The notes below the pieces were generated by a model. It was not told the origin of the DNA. It searched no databases and was given only the letters and a program-made list of their open reading frames with translations. Below are positions 5,021 through 31,282 of a stretch of DNA of 42,618 nt, in pieces; the stretch's first letter is position 1; the number at the start of each line of letters is the position of its first letter. The position numbers and the translations under genes are program-made. The stretch covers positions 1 through 42,618 of the forward strand of contig NZ_JAMZMM010000009.1 of assembly GCF_024178385.1 (NCBI RefSeq), read 5' to 3'. This DNA is from Limnofasciculus baicalensis BBK-W-15. GTDB lineage: Bacteria; Cyanobacteriota; Cyanobacteriia; Cyanobacteriales; Coleofasciculaceae.

Positions 5021-5464
5021 TCAGATCCAGGATTCCAAGTCGAATGGCTCAACTGCTTGAATGCGCTGGAAGTCTCGATCGCTTGTGACTAGGGTAAGTT
5101 GATGCTGGATGGCAACTGCGGCAATCCACAGATCGTTTTCGCCGATGCCCAATTGAGTGATGTTGGTTTGACGGCGTTGGGCTTTGTCTTTTGGGGCGTA
5201 GCGATCGAAAACTGCCGCTTTGAGGTTACCGTAAATTTCGGCGGTGGTTTCGTCGATGGGATAGATGTATAGCCCAAGTAGGAAGCGTTGAACTAGGGCA
5301 AGATTAGCCTGTCGTTGTTGGGATCTCGCCGCCATGTCAATCAGTTCACCCTTAACAATGGTGCAGGTAGCGATTGAGGAATCCCCAAGGCTGGCAAGGT
5401 GTTCGAGTACTTGAGTCTTGCCTAGTATGGCATAGCTACAATGGTTGGTGTCGAGGAGAAACAT
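5021..5464 (-). CDS. vapC: VapC-type PIN-domain toxin
   Basis: A 147-residue PIN ribonuclease of a type II TA pair. It has the first catalytic Asp in MFLLDTN (D5), the conserved Glu in IVKGELI, and the later acidic cluster GENDLWIAA followed by LVTSDRDF. These residues bind the divalent metal that cleaves RNA. The length is typical. Its ATG overlaps the stop of the antitoxin gene by one base, so the pair is translationally coupled. It appears intact. Confidence 0.88.
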   Translation of the reverse strand: MFLLDTNHCSYAILGKTQVLEHLASLGDSSIATCTIVKGELIDMAARSQQRQANLALVQRFLLGLYIYPIDETTAEIYGNLKAAVFDRYAPKDKAQRRQTNITQLGIGENDLWIAAVAIQHQLTLVTSDRDFQRIQAVEPFDLESWI

Positions 5465-5706
5465 TACTCAAAGGGATTGGGGCTGTAGTCAAATTGTGCT
5501 TCGCCGCCTGAGTTTTGGACAGCTTCTAAACATTCTTGGAAGTCATCGCCTGACCAAGTGCCGATTGTCTTGAGGTGGGTGAGGAAGGATTTAGCAGTTG
5601 GGATCGAAGGTTTCGTGGTGAGAGATTTCAGGAAGGAGAGGGCTTCAGCAAGCCTTGTATTGGGCAAAGCTTCGATTGCTTGGAGGAGTTGTTCTTTGAG
5701 AGTCAT
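5464..5706 (-). CDS. vapB: Antitoxin partner of VapC
   Basis: An 80-residue protein starting MTLKEQLLQAIEALPNTRL. It has a helical N-terminus of the DUF2281-like type common in cyanobacterial antitoxins and an acidic, aromatic C-terminus (DDFQECLEAVQNSG...DYSPNPFE) suited to toxin binding. It sits directly upstream of vapC with a one-base overlap. No obvious ribbon-helix-helix or AbrB fold can be read, so the DNA-binding mode is unclear. The role is assigned from context. Confidence 0.7.
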   Translation of the reverse strand: MTLKEQLLQAIEALPNTRLAEALSFLKSLTTKPSIPTAKSFLTHLKTIGTWSGDDFQECLEAVQNSGGEAQFDYSPNPFE

Positions 5707-11871: not shown

Positions 11872-12306
11872 ATGATTCCCTCCTCAACAATTTCTTCTCC
11901 TTTAACGATTCCTCCTTTAGAAAACGGCGATAAGCTTACCCGTGCTGAGTTTGAGCGTCGTTACGAGGCAATGGCTGAAGTTAAAAAAGCCGAATTAATT
12001 GAAGGAGTGGTTTATATGGCATCTCCGGTATGCGCAAAAAGTCACGGCAAACCCCATGGAGCCATTATGGGTTGGCTAGTTGCTTGTGAAGCAGCTACGC
12101 CAGGTGTGGAAGCACTCGATAACACAACACTTCGCCTTAATGCCGATAACGAGCCGCAACCCGATGCAATTGAAGTCTTCCCAGGGCTATGGTTGGATAT
12201 AAGCGCTTTATTAGCCGGAGATTTAGCGAGAGTTATAGATTTACTCTAGCAAGAAGTCTCGACTCAATCTCATCAAGATTTTCTAGAAATATTGGGATAT
12301 GCCTAG
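11872..12306 (+). pseudogene. Uma2 (DUF820) family gene with internal deletion and early stop
   Basis: The first 105 codons encode a standard Uma2 start (LTRAEFERRYEAM, KKAELIEGVVYMASPV, SHGKPHG, NTTLRLNADNEPQPDA). The sequence then jumps in frame to IEVFPGLWLDISALLAGD, which is the C-terminal end of the family. About 85-90 codons carrying the nuclease-fold core (the E-V-x-S segment) are missing. A TAG at 12247 then interrupts the tail, which can be read on as QEVSTQSHQDFLEILGYA to 12306. Two independent lesions make a working product improbable. Confidence 0.8.
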
Positions 12307-12366: not shown

Positions 12367-12738
12367 ATGAGTGTAGCAATGGAAAAGCGGAGTAAGGCTA
12401 TAGAATTAGTCACCAAATTCCCTCCTGAAGTTTTGGATAAAGCCGTAGAATTGTTAGAAGCTTTACAGGCACAATTTGAAAGAGAAACGGCTTTGTTACA
12501 AATTATTGATCGAGCTTTGCCACCGGAGGATCAGCAAAAATTAGATTGCTTGCGAGAGCGTTGCGAGTGGGATAATTTAACTGAATCTGAATATCAGGAG
12601 TTATTAGCTTATGAAGATTGGTTAGAAAATCAAAACGTGGCGAGATTAGAAGCAATTATACAGCTAGCAGAAATTAAAAATATGACTTGGCAAGCTTTCT
12701 ACCAAAAATTAACTCCTAGTGAGGAGTCAATCAACTAA
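12367..12738 (+). CDS. Small protein coupled to HNH endonuclease (module copy 1)
   Basis: A 123-residue protein from ATG 12367, preceded by aaaggat. The N-terminal half is helical (AIELVTKFPPEVLDKAVELL) without a recognised fold. The C-terminal half (NLTESEYQELLAYEDWLE, then NVARLEAIIQLAEIKN) clearly matches that of the protein at 30637 (LTPEEHEQLIQ...DRLEQLNVTRIQALIQLA). Its stop overlaps the ATG of an HNH nuclease by one base, exactly as in the second locus. An antitoxin or immunity-like or adaptor role is inferred from this coupling. I know no name for the family. Confidence 0.75.
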   Translation: MSVAMEKRSKAIELVTKFPPEVLDKAVELLEALQAQFERETALLQIIDRALPPEDQQKLDCLRERCEWDNLTESEYQELLAYEDWLENQNVARLEAIIQLAEIKNMTWQAFYQKLTPSEESIN

Positions 12739-13169
12739 TGTCATCAGAAAGAATAACAGCTAGTCTTAAGCGTTTAGTAACAGAGAGAGCGAAAAGTTAC
12801 TGTGAATATTGTCGTATTTCTAGTCAATATTCGCCTGGTTATTTTACTGTAGATCATATTAAACCATCTCAATCTGGCGGAGAAACAACTTTAGATAATT
12901 TAGCTTTGTCATGTCATGGTTGTAATAGCGTTAAACATACAAAATTTATGGCAATTGATCCTGAAACCAGCACAGAAGTAACTTTATTTAATCCGCGTCA
13001 GCAAGTCTGGAGCGAACATTTTAGTTGGAGTGAAAATTTCCTGGAAATTAGGGGGATAACCCCTTGTGGGAGAGCGACAGTAACAGCACTTAAATTAAAT
13101 AGAATGGGATTAGTTAATTTAAGAGATTTGTTAGTCAAAGCTGGTTTACATCCGCCACCTGAAGTGTAA
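12738..13169 (+). CDS. HNH endonuclease (module copy 1)
   Basis: A 143-residue HNH nuclease with the zinc-stabilised core: CEYC near residue 22, FTVDHIKPSQSGG with the metal-binding DH, TLDNLALSCHGCN with the central Asn and second CxxC. The C-terminal part (IDPETSTEVTLFNPRQQVW...HFSW) is complete, unlike the second copy at 31043. It is predicted to nick or cut DNA with a metal cofactor. Start ATG 12738 overlaps the upstream stop. Substrate unknown. Confidence 0.9.
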   Translation: MSSERITASLKRLVTERAKSYCEYCRISSQYSPGYFTVDHIKPSQSGGETTLDNLALSCHGCNSVKHTKFMAIDPETSTEVTLFNPRQQVWSEHFSWSENFLEIRGITPCGRATVTALKLNRMGLVNLRDLLVKAGLHPPPEV

Positions 13170-13195
13170 AATTTAGTAATTAAGGCATCGCGCTC

Positions 13196-13252
13196 CGAGT
13201 GGGATAATTTAACTGAATCTGAATATCAGGAGTTATTAGCTTATCAAGATTG
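13196..13252 (+). repeat. 57-bp duplicate of the HNH-partner gene
   Basis: Bases 13196-13252 repeat 12564-12620 with a single difference (caa for gaa). They encode the conserved patch EWDNLTESEYQELLAYQD, followed at once by TGA. This is a remnant of a further copy of the small-protein gene, or a short local duplication, at the 3' side of the HNH gene. Confidence 0.9.
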
Positions 13253-13687
13253 ATTATAAATTTCTCCAAACCAATCTTCATCAAGGGCTTTTTTTAAGGA
13301 AATATGAGCATTCTGGGGGATTGCAAAGAGCTTAGAAACAGACTTAACCGCTACAGGATATGCTTTGGCATACATTCCTTCCAGTTCATTTTTTAAACTT
13401 GGACTATCTTCTAAACGATCTTGAATTTGAGCGCGAAAATTGACAATTTCAGCAGCCCAATGATTTCCAGAATATTCTTTTTCAACTTCCCAATAACATA
13501 ATTTAAGCAGATGTTCTAATAAACGGGTTAACAGACTTAACACCGCCCGTCTATCGCTTTTACCCATACTCTCTAACTCTTCTATTAAATTATCCCAGTC
13601 AACCCGATCGAAATTTCGTTCTCTTAATTGGTTGACTGTTTCTTTAATCCATTGATGATGATCTGTTTCGTATCGGGTGAATGACAC
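13244..13687 (-). CDS. DUF29 family protein
   Basis: A 147-residue protein with the DUF29 signature: YETDHHQWIKETVNQLRER near the start, then DWDNLIEELESMGKSDRRA, LLTRLLEHLLKLCYW and an all-helical remainder. DUF29 proteins are abundant in cyanobacteria in many copies; their biochemical role is unknown to me. The start has a good ribosome-binding site (gaggaga). Its 3' end overlaps the duplicated 57-bp segment, so the last codons may be altered. Confidence 0.9.
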   Translation of the reverse strand: MSFTRYETDHHQWIKETVNQLRERNFDRVDWDNLIEELESMGKSDRRAVLSLLTRLLEHLLKLCYWEVEKEYSGNHWAAEIVNFRAQIQDRLEDSPSLKNELEGMYAKAYPVAVKSVSKLFAIPQNAHISLKKALDEDWFGEIYNQS

Positions 13688-24968: not shown

Positions 24969-25079
24969 ATGAAGACGTTACACGAGTATGATGTTGTTGC
25001 CTTGAACGAACAAATAATACCTGGTAGTGGCTCGAAAATCGCTACAATTAAGCTATCCAATTTGCCTGCAATACTATGA
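24969..25079 (+). pseudogene. DUF4926-like 5' fragment
   Basis: From ATG 24969 the frame reads MKTLHEYDVVALNEQI, matching the start of DUF4926 proteins and the related sequence at 26289 (TLNEYDVVALTAEI). It then diverges (PGSGSKIATIKLSNLPAIL). It ends in an ATGA overlap with the Uma2 gene. It may be translated to feed the Uma2 start, but as a DUF4926 protein it is incomplete. Confidence 0.55.
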
Positions 25080-25645
25080 TTGCCATTCCCTCTGGATTTA
25101 GCCCCGAAGAGTACCTTTCCATCGAACATGAGAATACGATCCGACATGAATATCGGCGCGGTTTAGTCTACGCAATGGCGGGAGGTAGCGACGATCATAG
25201 CCGTCTCGCGATTAATTTATTAACGCTGATTAATTTTCACCTGCGTGATGGAGAATGTCAGTTTTTTTCCGGTGATGTCAAGGTGAATTATGCGGCTGAG
25301 TTTTTCTATTATCCCGATGCGTTTGTGACGTGCGATCCGCGAGATAAGAACGATCGCTATGTGAAGCGCTATCCTAAGTTGATTGCTGAGGTGCTGTCTC
25401 CTTCGACTAAAAAGTTCGATCGCACTGATAAGTTTGAGGATTATCAACAGTTGGAATCATTGGAAGAGTATGTTTTAATCTCGCAGGATGAGATGTGCGT
25501 GGAGTGTCGCCGTCGGGTGAAAGATGGGGGTGGGGAACGTTGGGAAACGGTGGTTTATTGTGCGGGTGATTTAGTCATGTTACAGAGTATTGAGCTGGAA
25601 ATTGCGATCGCAGAATTATATCGGGGTGTGAGTTTGGAGCGATAA
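25076..25645 (+). CDS. Uma2 (DUF820) family putative endonuclease
   Basis: A 189-residue protein with the full Uma2 pattern: SPEEYLSIEHENTIRHEYRR, YAMAGGSDDHSRLAIN, the acidic YYPDAFVTCD (D81), LIAEVLSPSTKKFDRTDKF (E105 and Lys after it) and LESLEEYVLIS. This is a PD-(D/E)XK-type fold. Uma2 genes occur in very high copy in cyanobacteria; their role is not established, but an origin as nuclease-like toxin or mobile gene is suspected. Start overlaps the previous frame. The 3' end is the source of the repeats seen at four places nearby. Confidence 0.9.
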   Translation: MIAIPSGFSPEEYLSIEHENTIRHEYRRGLVYAMAGGSDDHSRLAINLLTLINFHLRDGECQFFSGDVKVNYAAEFFYYPDAFVTCDPRDKNDRYVKRYPKLIAEVLSPSTKKFDRTDKFEDYQQLESLEEYVLISQDEMCVECRRRVKDGGGERWETVVYCAGDLVMLQSIELEIAIAELYRGVSLER

Positions 25646-27592: not shown

Positions 27593-30430
27593 ATGGCTGG
27601 TACAACTGTATGGGATCAATTGTCAAACGAGATGTCAAAAAGTGACGATAGTAAGTTTAAGGACAAAGTAATTTCGCTTTTACGAATATTAGATCCTTCT
27701 TTTGAAGAATGTTCAGATATTCCAGGAGCGGATTTTGTTGTAAGGTCTAGTGAAGATAAGCTTGACTGGGTAGTACAGTGTCAGGCTTTTGATGTTGAGT
27801 TCGATTTGGATGAGAATCACGCTTTACAAATTGTTTCTACAACAGAAGCATTTATAAGTGAAGGATTTAGATGCGATAGATATTGGGTACTGCATAATCA
27901 TCAGAATGGGAGGCGTGGGCGAGGGAAATTCAGTCATTTTTTAGGTAAAATTGAAGAATATAAAGCAAGCTTAGAAGCCTCTGGCAATATCAATAATTTT
28001 CGATTATTACAACGTCAAGAGTTTCTTGACAAAGCAGAAAATGAATTTAGAAGTACATTAACCTGTTTACTTCAAGAATATTCACGTCGATACAGACTAG
28101 ACATAGAAAACAAGCTTGAGTTTGGAAAATACTATGTTCCTAACGTACCTGCTGAGGAATCTGAGATTAGCTTTAGAGAGCATGAGCCTATCCCTAATGT
28201 CAAACAAGTACCAAGTAATGGAAATCAGAGTGTTTCCGAACTTGTTATTTCTGAGAGAAAAGATATTATCTGGACTTTGATGCACGGAGAAGCTGGTGCA
28301 GGTAAAACAACTACAGCTCTCTATACTGCAACCACAGCAAATAAAATAGTATTTTTCATCAACTGTGATATCTTGAATTTCTATTCATTACGTTCAGGGA
28401 CTAACTTCTTATTAGAGCATATTCTCAGAATGTTAAATATTTTAGAAGAATTTGAAGATGAAACGGATAGAGAGTTATTGTACTCGCTCTCAGGTGCAAC
28501 CTTGGGAAAAACGATTGAACACTCAGAGAAACATATCCTTGTGTTCGATGGTTTAGATGAAAATAGATTTTATTCAGATCCCAGTAGTGAAGGGATCAAG
28601 CGTTTAAGTGATAGGCTATCAGATATTCACTGCCCAATTATTTTAGTGACTAGGACATCGCATTTTGAAGAAAGTTTATTCAGCGAATTAGTGACTGTGA
28701 ATAATAGCAGAGGGGGAGCTAAAGCTCGTAGGAAAGCAAGAGCTTTAAAACTAGATATCTGGTCGAGCGATCATATTTTGCAGTTAATTGATAAAATTAT
28801 GGAGGACTACAAAAAAAATCTCCCAGATAGTGAAAATTCTCCAAGAATTTTAGATGGTGAAAGTTTCTTAAAAATTCAAAAATTTAGATGTCTTTTTTTA
28901 GATGAATCATACAGAGATTTTTACGGTGAGTTACCTCTCAACCCACTTTTTTTACAATTTATACTGTCTGATGTCGTTGAACGGGATATTCAGCCAGTAA
29001 ACAGACCAACTTTGATATATCAGTGGGTTCGACGAAAAATATATCGAGACATTGAAAAAGATAATCGTCCTTTTATTATTGAAAAAAAATCTGCAAAGGA
29101 TTTAACGTCGTCAGAGCGTAGTGAGCGAAATGTTCAAGTAGACAAAATTTTATATATTATGGAACTTGTATCAAAAGATATGACTTTGGGTCGTGAAGAT
29201 GGTACATTCGTCCTAAAAGATTTGACAGACTCTCAAAAAGTAGAAGAGTTTGCAGCAAAAATTTTTCAGGTAGATAGAGTAAGAATTATAGATGTACTTT
29301 TGAATTCTGTTCTGACATCTCATGCAACATTGACTCGTGAGAAATATCGTTCGACGAAGCAGAAAATCACATTTATATTCAAAATCTTACAGGAGTATTT
29401 TCTAGCATTATTTTTGGTTAGAAATAATGAAGATTTCTCGCGATATCCTAAAAGTATAATATCTTTTTGTGAAGAAATCATAAAAACCGATCCTGAAGAA
29501 GAATTATGGATGTATCTTAGAGAAAACTTTGATTTTTCGCAAGGAAATACACTTATGATTGATAATCAGCGATATGGTTTGAATCCCTTATTTGGGTGCA
29601 AAAACCCAGATCGGAAGGGCGATATTATTTTTGTTCATGGCTTGATGGGTCATGCTACGAAGACTTGGCATCCTAGCGAAAAGGACGATCCAGATTCATG
29701 TTGGTTAGGATGGCTTGCCAAAGATCAAAAGCTATCAGAACTAGGAATTTGGACATATGGATATGAAGCAGAGCCTTCCGCTTGGAAAGGTAAAGGAATA
29801 CCTCTGTTCGATCAATCAAGTCCTCTATTAGATTACTTGGATAGCCAAGAGTTAGGAGACAAACCTATTATTTTTATTACTCACAGTTTAGGCGGTCTCT
29901 TAGTTAAAAAGATGCTGGAATCTGCTGACAAGTATCCCCAATCTCAAAAATTTATTCACCAAACAAAAGGGATTGTGTTCTTGGCAACTCCACATCAGGG
30001 TGCACATCTAGCTGAGTTAATCAAAAATATTGGTACTTTGTTCGCACGTCTTGAACCCATCGTTAACGATCTTAAAGCTAATGAGCATAATCTACGATCA
30101 CTTAATGAAACATACAGGCAAAAATGCCGTAGTTGGTGTATTGAAACTAAGGTATATTTTGAAACAGAAGCAGTGTTCGGAGTGAAAGTAGTTGAAGAAA
30201 TGAGTGCAGATCCAGGACTTTTAGACGTAAAACCATTTGCAGTTCAGGGAGCCAATCACATTTCTATTGCCAAGCCTGAGTCTGAAAATTCGCAAGTATA
30301 CATAGGAGTTAGAAAGTTTATAAAGGACTCCTTGAATATACCTGCAAAAATTCCTTTGAATTTGCCTGATAAAGTTACCAAAATTATTGAGGTTGATGAC
30401 GTTTGCCAGAACGAATTCAAGCGGCTCTGA
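27593..30430 (+). CDS. Nuclease-like / STAND (NACHT-type) NTPase / alpha-beta hydrolase fusion
   Basis: A 945-residue single-gene fusion. Residues about 20-150 resemble a restriction-endonuclease-like (Mrr-type) fold: GADFVV (45-50) and WVVQCQAF (59-66), where the usual Q-C-K is Q-C-Q, so the catalytic Lys may be missing. Residues about 220-610 form a P-loop NTPase: Walker A HGEAGAGKTT (231-240), Walker B HILVFDGLDE (314-323) and a sensor-like ILVTRTS (350-356). Residues 670-910 are an alpha/beta hydrolase: FVHGLMGHATKTW, nucleophile elbow THSLGG (S765), VFLATPHQGAH and His in QGANHISIAKPE (H889). The gene is AT-rich relative to neighbours. Probably a defence protein that oligomerises on sensing phage and activates the lipase/esterase-like domain. 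Ribosome-binding site aggaag. Confidence 0.85.
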   Translation: MAGTTVWDQLSNEMSKSDDSKFKDKVISLLRILDPSFEECSDIPGADFVVRSSEDKLDWVVQCQAFDVEFDLDENHALQIVSTTEAFISEGFRCDRYWVLHNHQNGRRGRGKFSHFLGKIEEYKASLEASGNINNFRLLQRQEFLDKAENEFRSTLTCLLQEYSRRYRLDIENKLEFGKYYVPNVPAEESEISFREHEPIPNVKQVPSNGNQSVSELVISERKDIIWTLMHGEAGAGKTTTALYTATTANKIVFFINCDILNFYSLRSGTNFLLEHILRMLNILEEFEDETDRELLYSLSGATLGKTIEHSEKHILVFDGLDENRFYSDPSSEGIKRLSDRLSDIHCPIILVTRTSHFEESLFSELVTVNNSRGGAKARRKARALKLDIWSSDHILQLIDKIMEDYKKNLPDSENSPRILDGESFLKIQKFRCLFLDESYRDFYGELPLNPLFLQFILSDVVERDIQPVNRPTLIYQWVRRKIYRDIEKDNRPFIIEKKSAKDLTSSERSERNVQVDKILYIMELVSKDMTLGREDGTFVLKDLTDSQKVEEFAAKIFQVDRVRIIDVLLNSVLTSHATLTREKYRSTKQKITFIFKILQEYFLALFLVRNNEDFSRYPKSIISFCEEIIKTDPEEELWMYLRENFDFSQGNTLMIDNQRYGLNPLFGCKNPDRKGDIIFVHGLMGHATKTWHPSEKDDPDSCWLGWLAKDQKLSELGIWTYGYEAEPSAWKGKGIPLFDQSSPLLDYLDSQELGDKPIIFITHSLGGLLVKKMLESADKYPQSQKFIHQTKGIVFLATPHQGAHLAELIKNIGTLFARLEPIVNDLKANEHNLRSLNETYRQKCRSWCIETKVYFETEAVFGVKVVEEMSADPGLLDVKPFAVQGANHISIAKPESENSQVYIGVRKFIKDSLNIPAKIPLNLPDKVTKIIEVDDVCQNEFKRL

Positions 30431-30636: not shown

Positions 30637-31050
30637 ATGACCACCATCACCCTCAACCTCTCTCCCGAACTCGAACATCAGATCCGCACTGAAGCATCTC
30701 GACAGGGCGTTGAACCCCATCGCTACATCCTCAACGCCCTACAAGAACACCTCCAGCCTAGACTTCCAACCACCCAACCTACTGAAGCCGACTTGCTGCA
30801 ACAAATTAACATCGGCTTTTCTGCAAAAACCTGGGAAGAATATCATGCCCTCATCACCAAGCGTCATGCCGAAACCCTGACTCCCGAAGAACACGAACAA
30901 CTGATTCAAATGAGCGATCGCCTTGAACAACTCAATGTTACCCGCATTCAAGCCTTAATTCAACTCGCAACCTTCCGTAACCAACCTCTGACAGATCTGA
31001 TGCAAACCCTCGGCATCAATCCTCATCCCGATATCGTTGATTATGTCTGA
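30637..31050 (+). CDS. RHH-type small protein coupled to HNH endonuclease (module copy 2)
   Basis: A 137-residue protein. Residues 1-40 (TTITLNLSPELEHQIRTEAS, HRYILNALQEHL) look like a ribbon-helix-helix DNA-binding domain. Residues about 85-135 carry the same helical block as the protein at 12367 (LTPEEHEQLIQMSDRLEQLN, then IQALIQLATFRN). It overlaps the HNH gene by eight bases. The likely role is a partner, antitoxin-like repressor of the HNH gene (inference). Intact. Confidence 0.8.
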   Translation: MTTITLNLSPELEHQIRTEASRQGVEPHRYILNALQEHLQPRLPTTQPTEADLLQQINIGFSAKTWEEYHALITKRHAETLTPEEHEQLIQMSDRLEQLNVTRIQALIQLATFRNQPLTDLMQTLGINPHPDIVDYV

Positions 31051-31282
31051 ATCTCGCCTCACACAGCAGCAACGACAATTCATTAAACAACGCGCCAATG
31101 GTTGCTGTGAGTATTGTCTCAGCCAAGCTAAATTCTCTTCAGATCCCTTCTCCATTGAACACATTATCCCTCGCTCCAAAAGTGGCACCAGTGATTTGGA
31201 TAATCTGGCGATCGCTTGTCAAGGGTGCAACAATTTTAAATACAGTCATATTCGAGTCATCGATATCCTAGAGTTGCTATAA
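31043..31282 (+). CDS. HNH endonuclease, shortened C-terminus (module copy 2)
   Basis: Starting at ATG 31043 (MSESRLTQQQ) the 79-residue product has the HNH core: CCEYC near residue 22, FSIEHIIPRSKSG, DLDNLAIACQGCNNFKYS. Compared with the copy at 12738 it lacks about 60 C-terminal residues, ending IDILELL where the other continues with IDPETSTEV. The zinc and metal ligands are all present, so activity is possible but a 3' deletion is likely. Confidence 0.8.
   Translation: MSESRLTQQQRQFIKQRANGCCEYCLSQAKFSSDPFSIEHIIPRSKSGTSDLDNLAIACQGCNNFKYSHIRVIDILELL

What the first reader, a model, noticed from the sequence alone, without database searches (positions are those of the whole stretch)
12367..13169. 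Two-gene module: exchangeable-head small protein coupled to an HNH nuclease (copy 1)
Here a small protein overlaps an HNH endonuclease by one base. The same pair recurs at 30637-31282. The C-terminal halves of the two small proteins are clearly related (LT..E...L....D.LE..NV.R..A.IQLA) while the N-terminal halves differ: helical here, ribbon-helix-helix there. This is what one expects of an antitoxin family with a constant nuclease-binding part and variable DNA-binding parts. I know of no description of such a TA type.
Basis: partly seen in the sequence, partly recalled or inferred. Interest (0 to 1): 0.65.

Follow-up and report, generated by a model that had tools for sequence, protein, structure and literature searches.

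The report
Swappable-head partner gene plus HNH nuclease
A small gene that sits in front of a particular bacterial nuclease gene keeps one half constant while its other half has been swapped several times in evolution, which is what one would expect of an undescribed, widespread poison-and-antidote type gene pair, although nobody has yet tested whether the nuclease is toxic.

Summary
Both window pairs are real, but the HNH of copy 2 is truncated (79 aa; intact ones are mostly 140-146 aa). The shared C-terminal block is a domain of about 78 residues that no searched family library models; I call it CT. Of 145 distinct near-complete CT proteins, mostly from 388 cyanobacterial genomes, 86 are followed by an HNH gene. 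In reverse, 78 of 78 members of this HNH subfamily have a CT gene upstream, and so do 80 of 80 best HNH relatives in a separate scan of GTDB genomes, reaching Chloroflexota, Acidobacteria and Proteobacteria. Heads differ by clade and were replaced within the HNH tree, while CT and HNH trees agree. Decay is one-sided: 20 loci keep an intact CT gene beside a broken or partial HNH; 2 show the reverse. Other HNH subfamilies carry small genes with remotely related C-terminal blocks. The HNH protein resembles PtuB, a retron/Septu effector, by profile and by model. Best reading: a type II-like toxin-antitoxin module with modular antitoxins and a PtuB-like nuclease. Toxicity, neutralisation, binding and substrate are untested. 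I found no description in the papers searched.

The parts
12367..12738 (+). copy 1 small gene (123 aa): helical head plus C-terminal CT domain
12484..12717 (+). CT domain of copy 1 (approximate ends)
   Evidence: CT profile built; boundary
12738..13169 (+). copy 1 HNH nuclease gene (143 aa, PtuB-like, full length)
   Evidence: structural similarity of a homologue
30637..31050 (+). copy 2 small gene (137 aa): ribbon-helix-helix-like head plus CT domain
   Evidence: helix pattern of an RHH-headed homologue
30784..31017 (+). CT domain of copy 2 (approximate ends)
31043..31282 (+). copy 2 HNH gene, truncated (79 aa; keeps the HNH motif, lacks the C-terminal part)
   Evidence: HNH profile positions 1-75 only (L048)
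13190..13260 (+). 71-nt partial repeat of the copy 1 small gene (12558-12628), 20 nt after the HNH stop
   Evidence: also seen

Best explanation
A two-gene module that works like a type II toxin-antitoxin pair. The second gene makes a PtuB-like HNH nuclease (the toxin or effector; substrate DNA or tRNA, undecided). The first gene makes a modular neutraliser: its conserved C-terminal CT domain holds the nuclease, probably on the nuclease's own C-terminal part, and its variable head dimerises and probably binds DNA, so that the pair can repress its own operon. The overlapping genes are translationally coupled, small protein first. Shown by sequence: the linkage, the order, the overlap, the head replacement, CT-HNH co-inheritance and the one-sided decay. 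Inferred: nuclease activity, toxicity, neutralisation, the contact surface and autoregulation.
For: HNH subfamily never found without the partner: 78 of 78, 80 of 80. Partner always first; four start positions (-8, -11, -1, -4 relative to the end of the small gene's stop) account for 79 of 95 pairs. Intact partner with broken or partial HNH 20, the reverse 2 (binomial p 1.2e-4, or 7e-4 after removing three doubtful cases). Zn- and active-site residues C22, C25, H40, C59, C62, N63 invariant and N54 nearly so in 50 HNH proteins (the roles of the residues are recalled). Independent head replacement on a co-inherited CT-HNH backbone. Single members carry heads like AF2212-like (over Pfam cut-off) and, below cut-off, ParD, FitA RHH, RelB-like and DUF2281. 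HNH resembles PtuB by profile, E 1.4e-13 over residues 10-131, and by model, Z 7.0-7.5 for four retron PtuB chains against 3.1 for the next. Carried on cyanobacterial plasmids, 34 records at E 1e-15, all tiers together.
Against: No toxicity, binding or structure data. Many CT genes stand alone (39 intact ones with no HNH found, one of them, L085, wrongly so), so CT has some use, or persistence, without the nuclease. The scanned examples of the two commonest heads reach no Pfam cut-off, so DNA binding is unproved for most members. Two second-tier HNH genes have no recognisable small partner (L194, and L003 in this genome). Low-confidence HNH core in both models.
Confidence: 0.6

Rival explanations
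1. A two-subunit defence nuclease (Septu/retron-like): the HNH protein is the effector and the small protein a sensor or trigger that keeps it inactive until a phage signal is read by the variable head. Overlaps with the main reading but predicts activation by phage, not autoregulated addiction.
For: PtuB similarity by profile and by model; a Nostoc plasmid pair next to cas1-cas2; copy 2 lies 207 nt downstream of a 945-aa gene with an AAA-like region and an esterase-like end.
Against: No PtuA-type ATPase or reverse transcriptase of a retron recognised in the annotated plasmid neighbourhoods seen (one has a group II intron reverse transcriptase); not found in phages beyond weak hits; no enrichment test of neighbours was made.
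Confidence: 0.2
2. A DNA-targeted nuclease with interchangeable aiming subunits: the head binds specific DNA and CT delivers the HNH enzyme there, as in a homing or restriction-like system.
For: Heads resemble diverse DNA-binding families in some members, while the nuclease partner part stays constant.
Against: An aiming subunit should be useless without its nuclease, yet 39 intact CT genes have no HNH and 20 sit beside a broken or partial one. No common insertion site or host gene was noticed, but this was not tested.
Confidence: 0.12
3. Mobile gene pair with a housekeeping or regulatory role; the small protein is mainly a transcription repressor and the nuclease a repair or recombination enzyme.
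For: Patchy spread and plasmid carriage; solitary small genes.
Against: Does not predict obligate pairing of the nuclease nor one-sided decay.
Confidence: 0.08

Closest known systems
Type II toxin-antitoxin systems with modular antitoxins (e.g. RHH- or Phd-headed; NetFlax network, PMC10440598, passages read)
   Same: Two overlapping small genes, regulator-like protein first; separable head and partner-linked part; head and partner swapping; solitary antitoxins; plasmid carriage.
   Different: Nuclease is a PtuB-like HNH protein and the partner-linked CT domain matches no searched library. The main text of the 2009 survey of type II systems has no occurrence of HNH (find in PMC2701414). NetFlax mentions HNH once, as PtuB of a PtuAB pair.
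PtuB of Septu and of retron Ec78/Eco7
   Same: HNH protein similar over nearly its whole length by profile and by model. PtuB is an effector: a Septu abstract says tRNA-Tyr cleavage (PMC13096335) and a retron abstract says toxic effector proteins (PMC11555353); start of each abstract seen in the search listing.
   Different: The constant neighbour is a modular protein of about 120-150 aa, not a PtuA ATPase or reverse transcriptase.
DUF2281 plus PIN pair (another pair in this window, 5021-5706)
   Same: Small helical protein followed by an overlapping nuclease gene; one CT protein (L267) carries a weak DUF2281-like head.
   Different: PIN ribonuclease partner and no CT domain.
HNH nuclease MSMEG_1275 with the ArsR regulator MSMEG_6762 (PMC9416677, passages read)
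   Same: A chromosomal HNH nuclease whose over-expression stops growth, linked to a DNA-binding protein.
   Different: Not an operon pair; the regulator activates the nuclease gene.
Colicin E7/E9 HNH DNases and their immunity proteins (colicins named in PMC9416677; immunity proteins recalled)
   Same: HNH nuclease neutralised by a small cognate partner.
   Different: Secreted bacteriocin; partner gene order and fold differ; no heads (recalled).

Membership tests
Type II toxin-antitoxin | two-gene operon, small regulator-like gene first, overlap or short gap | tested here: met
Type II toxin-antitoxin | toxin protein harmful when made alone | not testable with these tools
   only indirect: HNH of this subfamily never without partner, and one-sided decay
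Type II toxin-antitoxin | antitoxin binds and neutralises the toxin | tested here: inconclusive
   read-through models with pTM 0.72 and 0.65; no PAE, coordinates or non-cognate control
Type II toxin-antitoxin | antitoxin carries a DNA-binding domain and autoregulates | tested here: inconclusive
   RHH-like heads in one clade, single AF2212-like and weak ParD/RelB-like heads; commonest heads unassigned; no conserved operator looked for beyond
HNH nucleases (Pfam PF01844) | HNH motif with Zn-binding cysteines and catalytic residues | tested here: met
Septu / retron PtuAB | PtuB-like HNH protein | tested here: met
   (PADLOC profile without curated cut-off; Z below 8)
Septu / retron PtuAB | adjacent PtuA ATPase | tested here: not met
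   annotated neighbours on five plasmids and the window neighbours scanned show none; longer flanks not examined
Prophage or phage gene | relatives in viral genomes | tested here: not met
   only distant fragments in IMG/VR and one Lactobacillus phage (two records) with 45% coverage

The most novel reading that the evidence does not exclude
An undescribed superfamily of toxin-antitoxin modules built on PtuB-like HNH nucleases, in which a family of helical CT-type domains is the universal nuclease holder and is fitted with whatever head is at hand (helical, RHH, AF2212-like, ParD-like and others). Counting the related subfamilies it may be among the commonest two-gene modules of cyanobacteria, and it spans several phyla. 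Solitary CT genes act as anti-addiction guards against incoming modules. The nuclease substrate may be a tRNA, as reported for Septu.
Probability: 0.4. Interest if true: 0.8.

Novelty: new variant of a known kind. Interest (0 to 1): 0.6.

Why it matters
If true, a large and unnamed class of nuclease modules becomes annotatable by one domain, and a link between retron and Septu effectors and simple two-gene toxin-antitoxin pairs becomes testable. Head replacement on a constant nuclease-holder is a clean natural experiment on how antitoxins evolve, and truncated or deleted nucleases next to intact partners show how such modules die. The profile of CT could be used directly to annotate genes now called hypothetical.

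Tried and rejected
Ideas dropped: (a) CT as a known family: no Pfam or NCBIfam model reached its curated cut-off for either small protein; PADLOC and PHROGs have no cut-offs and their weak hits (best 5e-4) point to unrelated names. (b) Phage origin: searches gave only distant fragments. (c) A natural CT-HNH fusion: none in the frames examined. (d) A large first alignment for the pair model misplaced the small proteins on the HNH half and was not used; a smaller set was chosen by placement tests. (e) Foldseek against the PDB gave nothing at E 0.001 or better; VIA-align looked only at 22 chains. No match for CT is no proof of a new fold. (f) Operator search: only weak inverted repeats upstream of both copies; not pursued. 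(g) Copy 1 head as DUF2281: only 1 of 48 small proteins in A2 matched weakly.

Limits of counts: the profiles A1 and A2 were built from paired genes, so the reverse test is partly circular; what is informative is the drop from 78 of 78 at 190 bits or more to 1 of 22 among the next 22 places. The match list was cut by the tool and I compared only its first 100 places. The 78 include G156, whose CT gene is truncated, and its CT place came, not. In the decay tally L026 is cut by a contig end, L097 and L127 lack only about 22 first positions, and L085 was wrongly scored as having no HNH because the genes overlap by 65 nt. The tally mixes genome-search loci with five plasmid loci, dropped identical ORFs, hits under 25 bits and duplicate window loci, and counts loci, not independent events. 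The 20 second-tier HNH loci were picked by me from the list, not at random. The sub4 and sub5 alignments converged on the same 60 frames, some of them the same place fetched twice, so they are one test, not two. The trees used the quick method without mixture model.

Full report
What is in the window. Copy 1 is a small gene (ATG 12367 to stop 12738) followed by an HNH gene (12738-13169); they share one base. Copy 2 is a small gene (30637-31050) followed by an HNH frame with ATG at 31043 and stop at 31282, overlapping by 8 nt. Both HNH proteins match Pfam HNH. The HNH of copy 2 has 79 residues; in 95 pairs from the cyanobacterial set most intact ones have 140-146, so copy 2 keeps the HNH motif but lacks the C-terminal part. 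The window is a 42.6-kb contig of a 6.6-Mb draft genome that I take to be cyanobacterial, since its named relatives in the plasmid and GTDB searches are mostly cyanobacteria.

The shared block is a domain. From two 388-genome searches with the small proteins (88 of 388 genomes each) and fetched flanks, an iterated profile settled on 78 columns, which I call CT. With both small-protein types in one profile, 106 of 388 genomes have a member at E 1e-4. No Pfam or NCBIfam model reaches its cut-off for it, and PHROGs and PADLOC give only weak hits.

Linkage to the HNH gene. Of 175 CT frames, duplicates included, 96 have an HNH domain within 600 nt downstream on the same strand; of 145 distinct near-complete CT proteins, 86 do. 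In reverse, the HNH profile A1 gave 78 places at 190 bits or more, all 78 with a CT gene upstream; of the next 22 places, 1 has one. In a separate scan of GTDB contigs the best 80 of 422 HNH relatives all have a CT gene directly upstream, stop-to-start distance -11 to +29 nt. They include Chloroflexi, Acidobacteria, Armatimonadetes, Aminicenantes, Sorangium, Thiomargarita and Thiofilum. The HNH start sits at -8, -11, -1 or -4 relative to the end of the small gene's stop in 79 of 95 pairs, which suggests translational coupling.

Heads. Among the 145 CT proteins, 69 carry a head of the LLKAV type, 42 the copy 1 type and 14 the RHH type of copy 2; the rest are rare or unclear. In 121 pairs the copy 1 head type (50) lies, with one other row, on one side of a split seen with both proteins (51 against 70; SH-aLRT supports 99 and 98). 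The RHH heads and a short NTQLV head nest inside the LLKAV clade of the HNH tree, and single other heads (L148, L269, L277) sit there too. Heads need 6 changes on the HNH tree and 5 on the CT tree for five named states, so replacement is real but not frequent. CT and HNH distances correlate, r 0.80 over all and 0.84 and 0.78 within the two main head classes, 0 of 2000 permutations each. Co-inheritance in an operon gives such a correlation without contact, so it does not prove binding. Pfam places an AF2212-like head over its cut-off in one CT protein (L023), and below cut-off ParD, FitA-RHH, RelB-like and DUF2281 heads in single proteins, two of them (RelB-like, FitA-RHH) from the related subfamilies.

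One-sided decay. Over distinct CT ORFs: both intact 73; CT intact with HNH broken or partial 20; CT intact with no HNH 39; CT intact at a contig end 3; CT broken with HNH intact 2; CT broken with HNH broken 4; CT broken with no HNH 18. In several cases the HNH core is deleted and a C-terminal remnant remains directly after the intact CT gene (L012 of this genome, L088, L101, L109, L112). 20 against 2 has binomial p 1.2e-4; without L026, L097 and L127 it is 17 against 2, p 7e-4. This is what loss of a toxin under a kept antitoxin would look like. It may also reflect a separate use of the small protein.

Relatives with other C-terminal blocks. Of 20 second-tier HNH loci that I picked, 19 are preceded by a small ORF (13 of one subfamily; 6 others); one, L194, is not. 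Profile comparison joins CT with the subfamily around L210 and L212 at 96-97% probability over 65-70 columns, and with the subfamily around L195 at 90% over 32 columns; the subfamilies around L208 and L211 are weaker against CT, 24% and 83%. Of 60 frames of the L210/L212 subfamily, 43 have an HNH downstream. HNH proteins of all tiers occur in 237 of 388 genomes at E 1e-12; that number mixes subfamilies and is not a count of CT modules.

Structure. A pair whose two genes happen to lie in one frame (L227) was modelled with its stop read as glycine: mean pLDDT 82, pTM 0.72, CT helices at about 90, part of the HNH core lower. An RHH-headed pair (L068) gave pLDDT 74 and pTM 0.65, with two head helices at 11-24 and 28-41 and a poor HNH core. 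I infer from pTM that CT and the C-terminal part of the HNH protein are placed together, because two unplaced halves should score lower; no PAE, coordinates or non-cognate control was available, so this is weak.

Mechanism. The best reading is a type II-like module: coupled translation, small protein first; CT holds the PtuB-like nuclease; the head dimerises and probably binds the operon's own DNA. The substrate is open. Septu is reported to cleave tRNA-Tyr (abstract start of PMC13096335), so DNA is not to be taken for granted.

Literature. Searches listed no paper whose title or abstract start describes this pair. The main text of the 2009 type II survey has no occurrence of HNH, nor has the Synechocystis type II paper; NetFlax mentions HNH once, as PtuB. 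The library holds open-licence papers only, so absence is not proof.

Noticed in passing
window 5021-5706, minus strand: A DUF2281-like small gene (below Pfam cut-off) followed by a PIN-domain gene, overlapping by one base: another toxin-antitoxin-like pair.
   Followed up: partly
window 27593-30430, plus strand: A 945-aa protein with a weak AAA region and a C-terminal serine-esterase-like region, 207 nt upstream of copy 2; looks like a STAND-type defence protein.
   Followed up: no
window 13190-13260: 71-nt repeat of part of the copy 1 small gene (64 of 71 identical) 20 nt after the HNH stop; probably the scar of a former tandem copy or unequal recombination.
   Followed up: partly
window 11872-12249 and 25076-25645: Two Uma2-family genes, the first short and just above the Pfam cut-off.
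   Followed up: no
L023 (G230 contig 21): Two CT genes in tandem before one HNH gene: an AF2212-like-headed one and a helical-headed one.
   Followed up: partly
L017 (NC_011721.1, Rippkaea orientalis PCC 8801 plasmid): An IS4-family transposase gene is inserted between the CT gene and its HNH gene.
   Followed up: partly
L195-L207: A second widespread HNH subfamily with its own small upstream protein (GAVRIELEEGIPIFRAS head, DDYLSFVNR tail); the one member scanned matches no Pfam family.
   Followed up: partly
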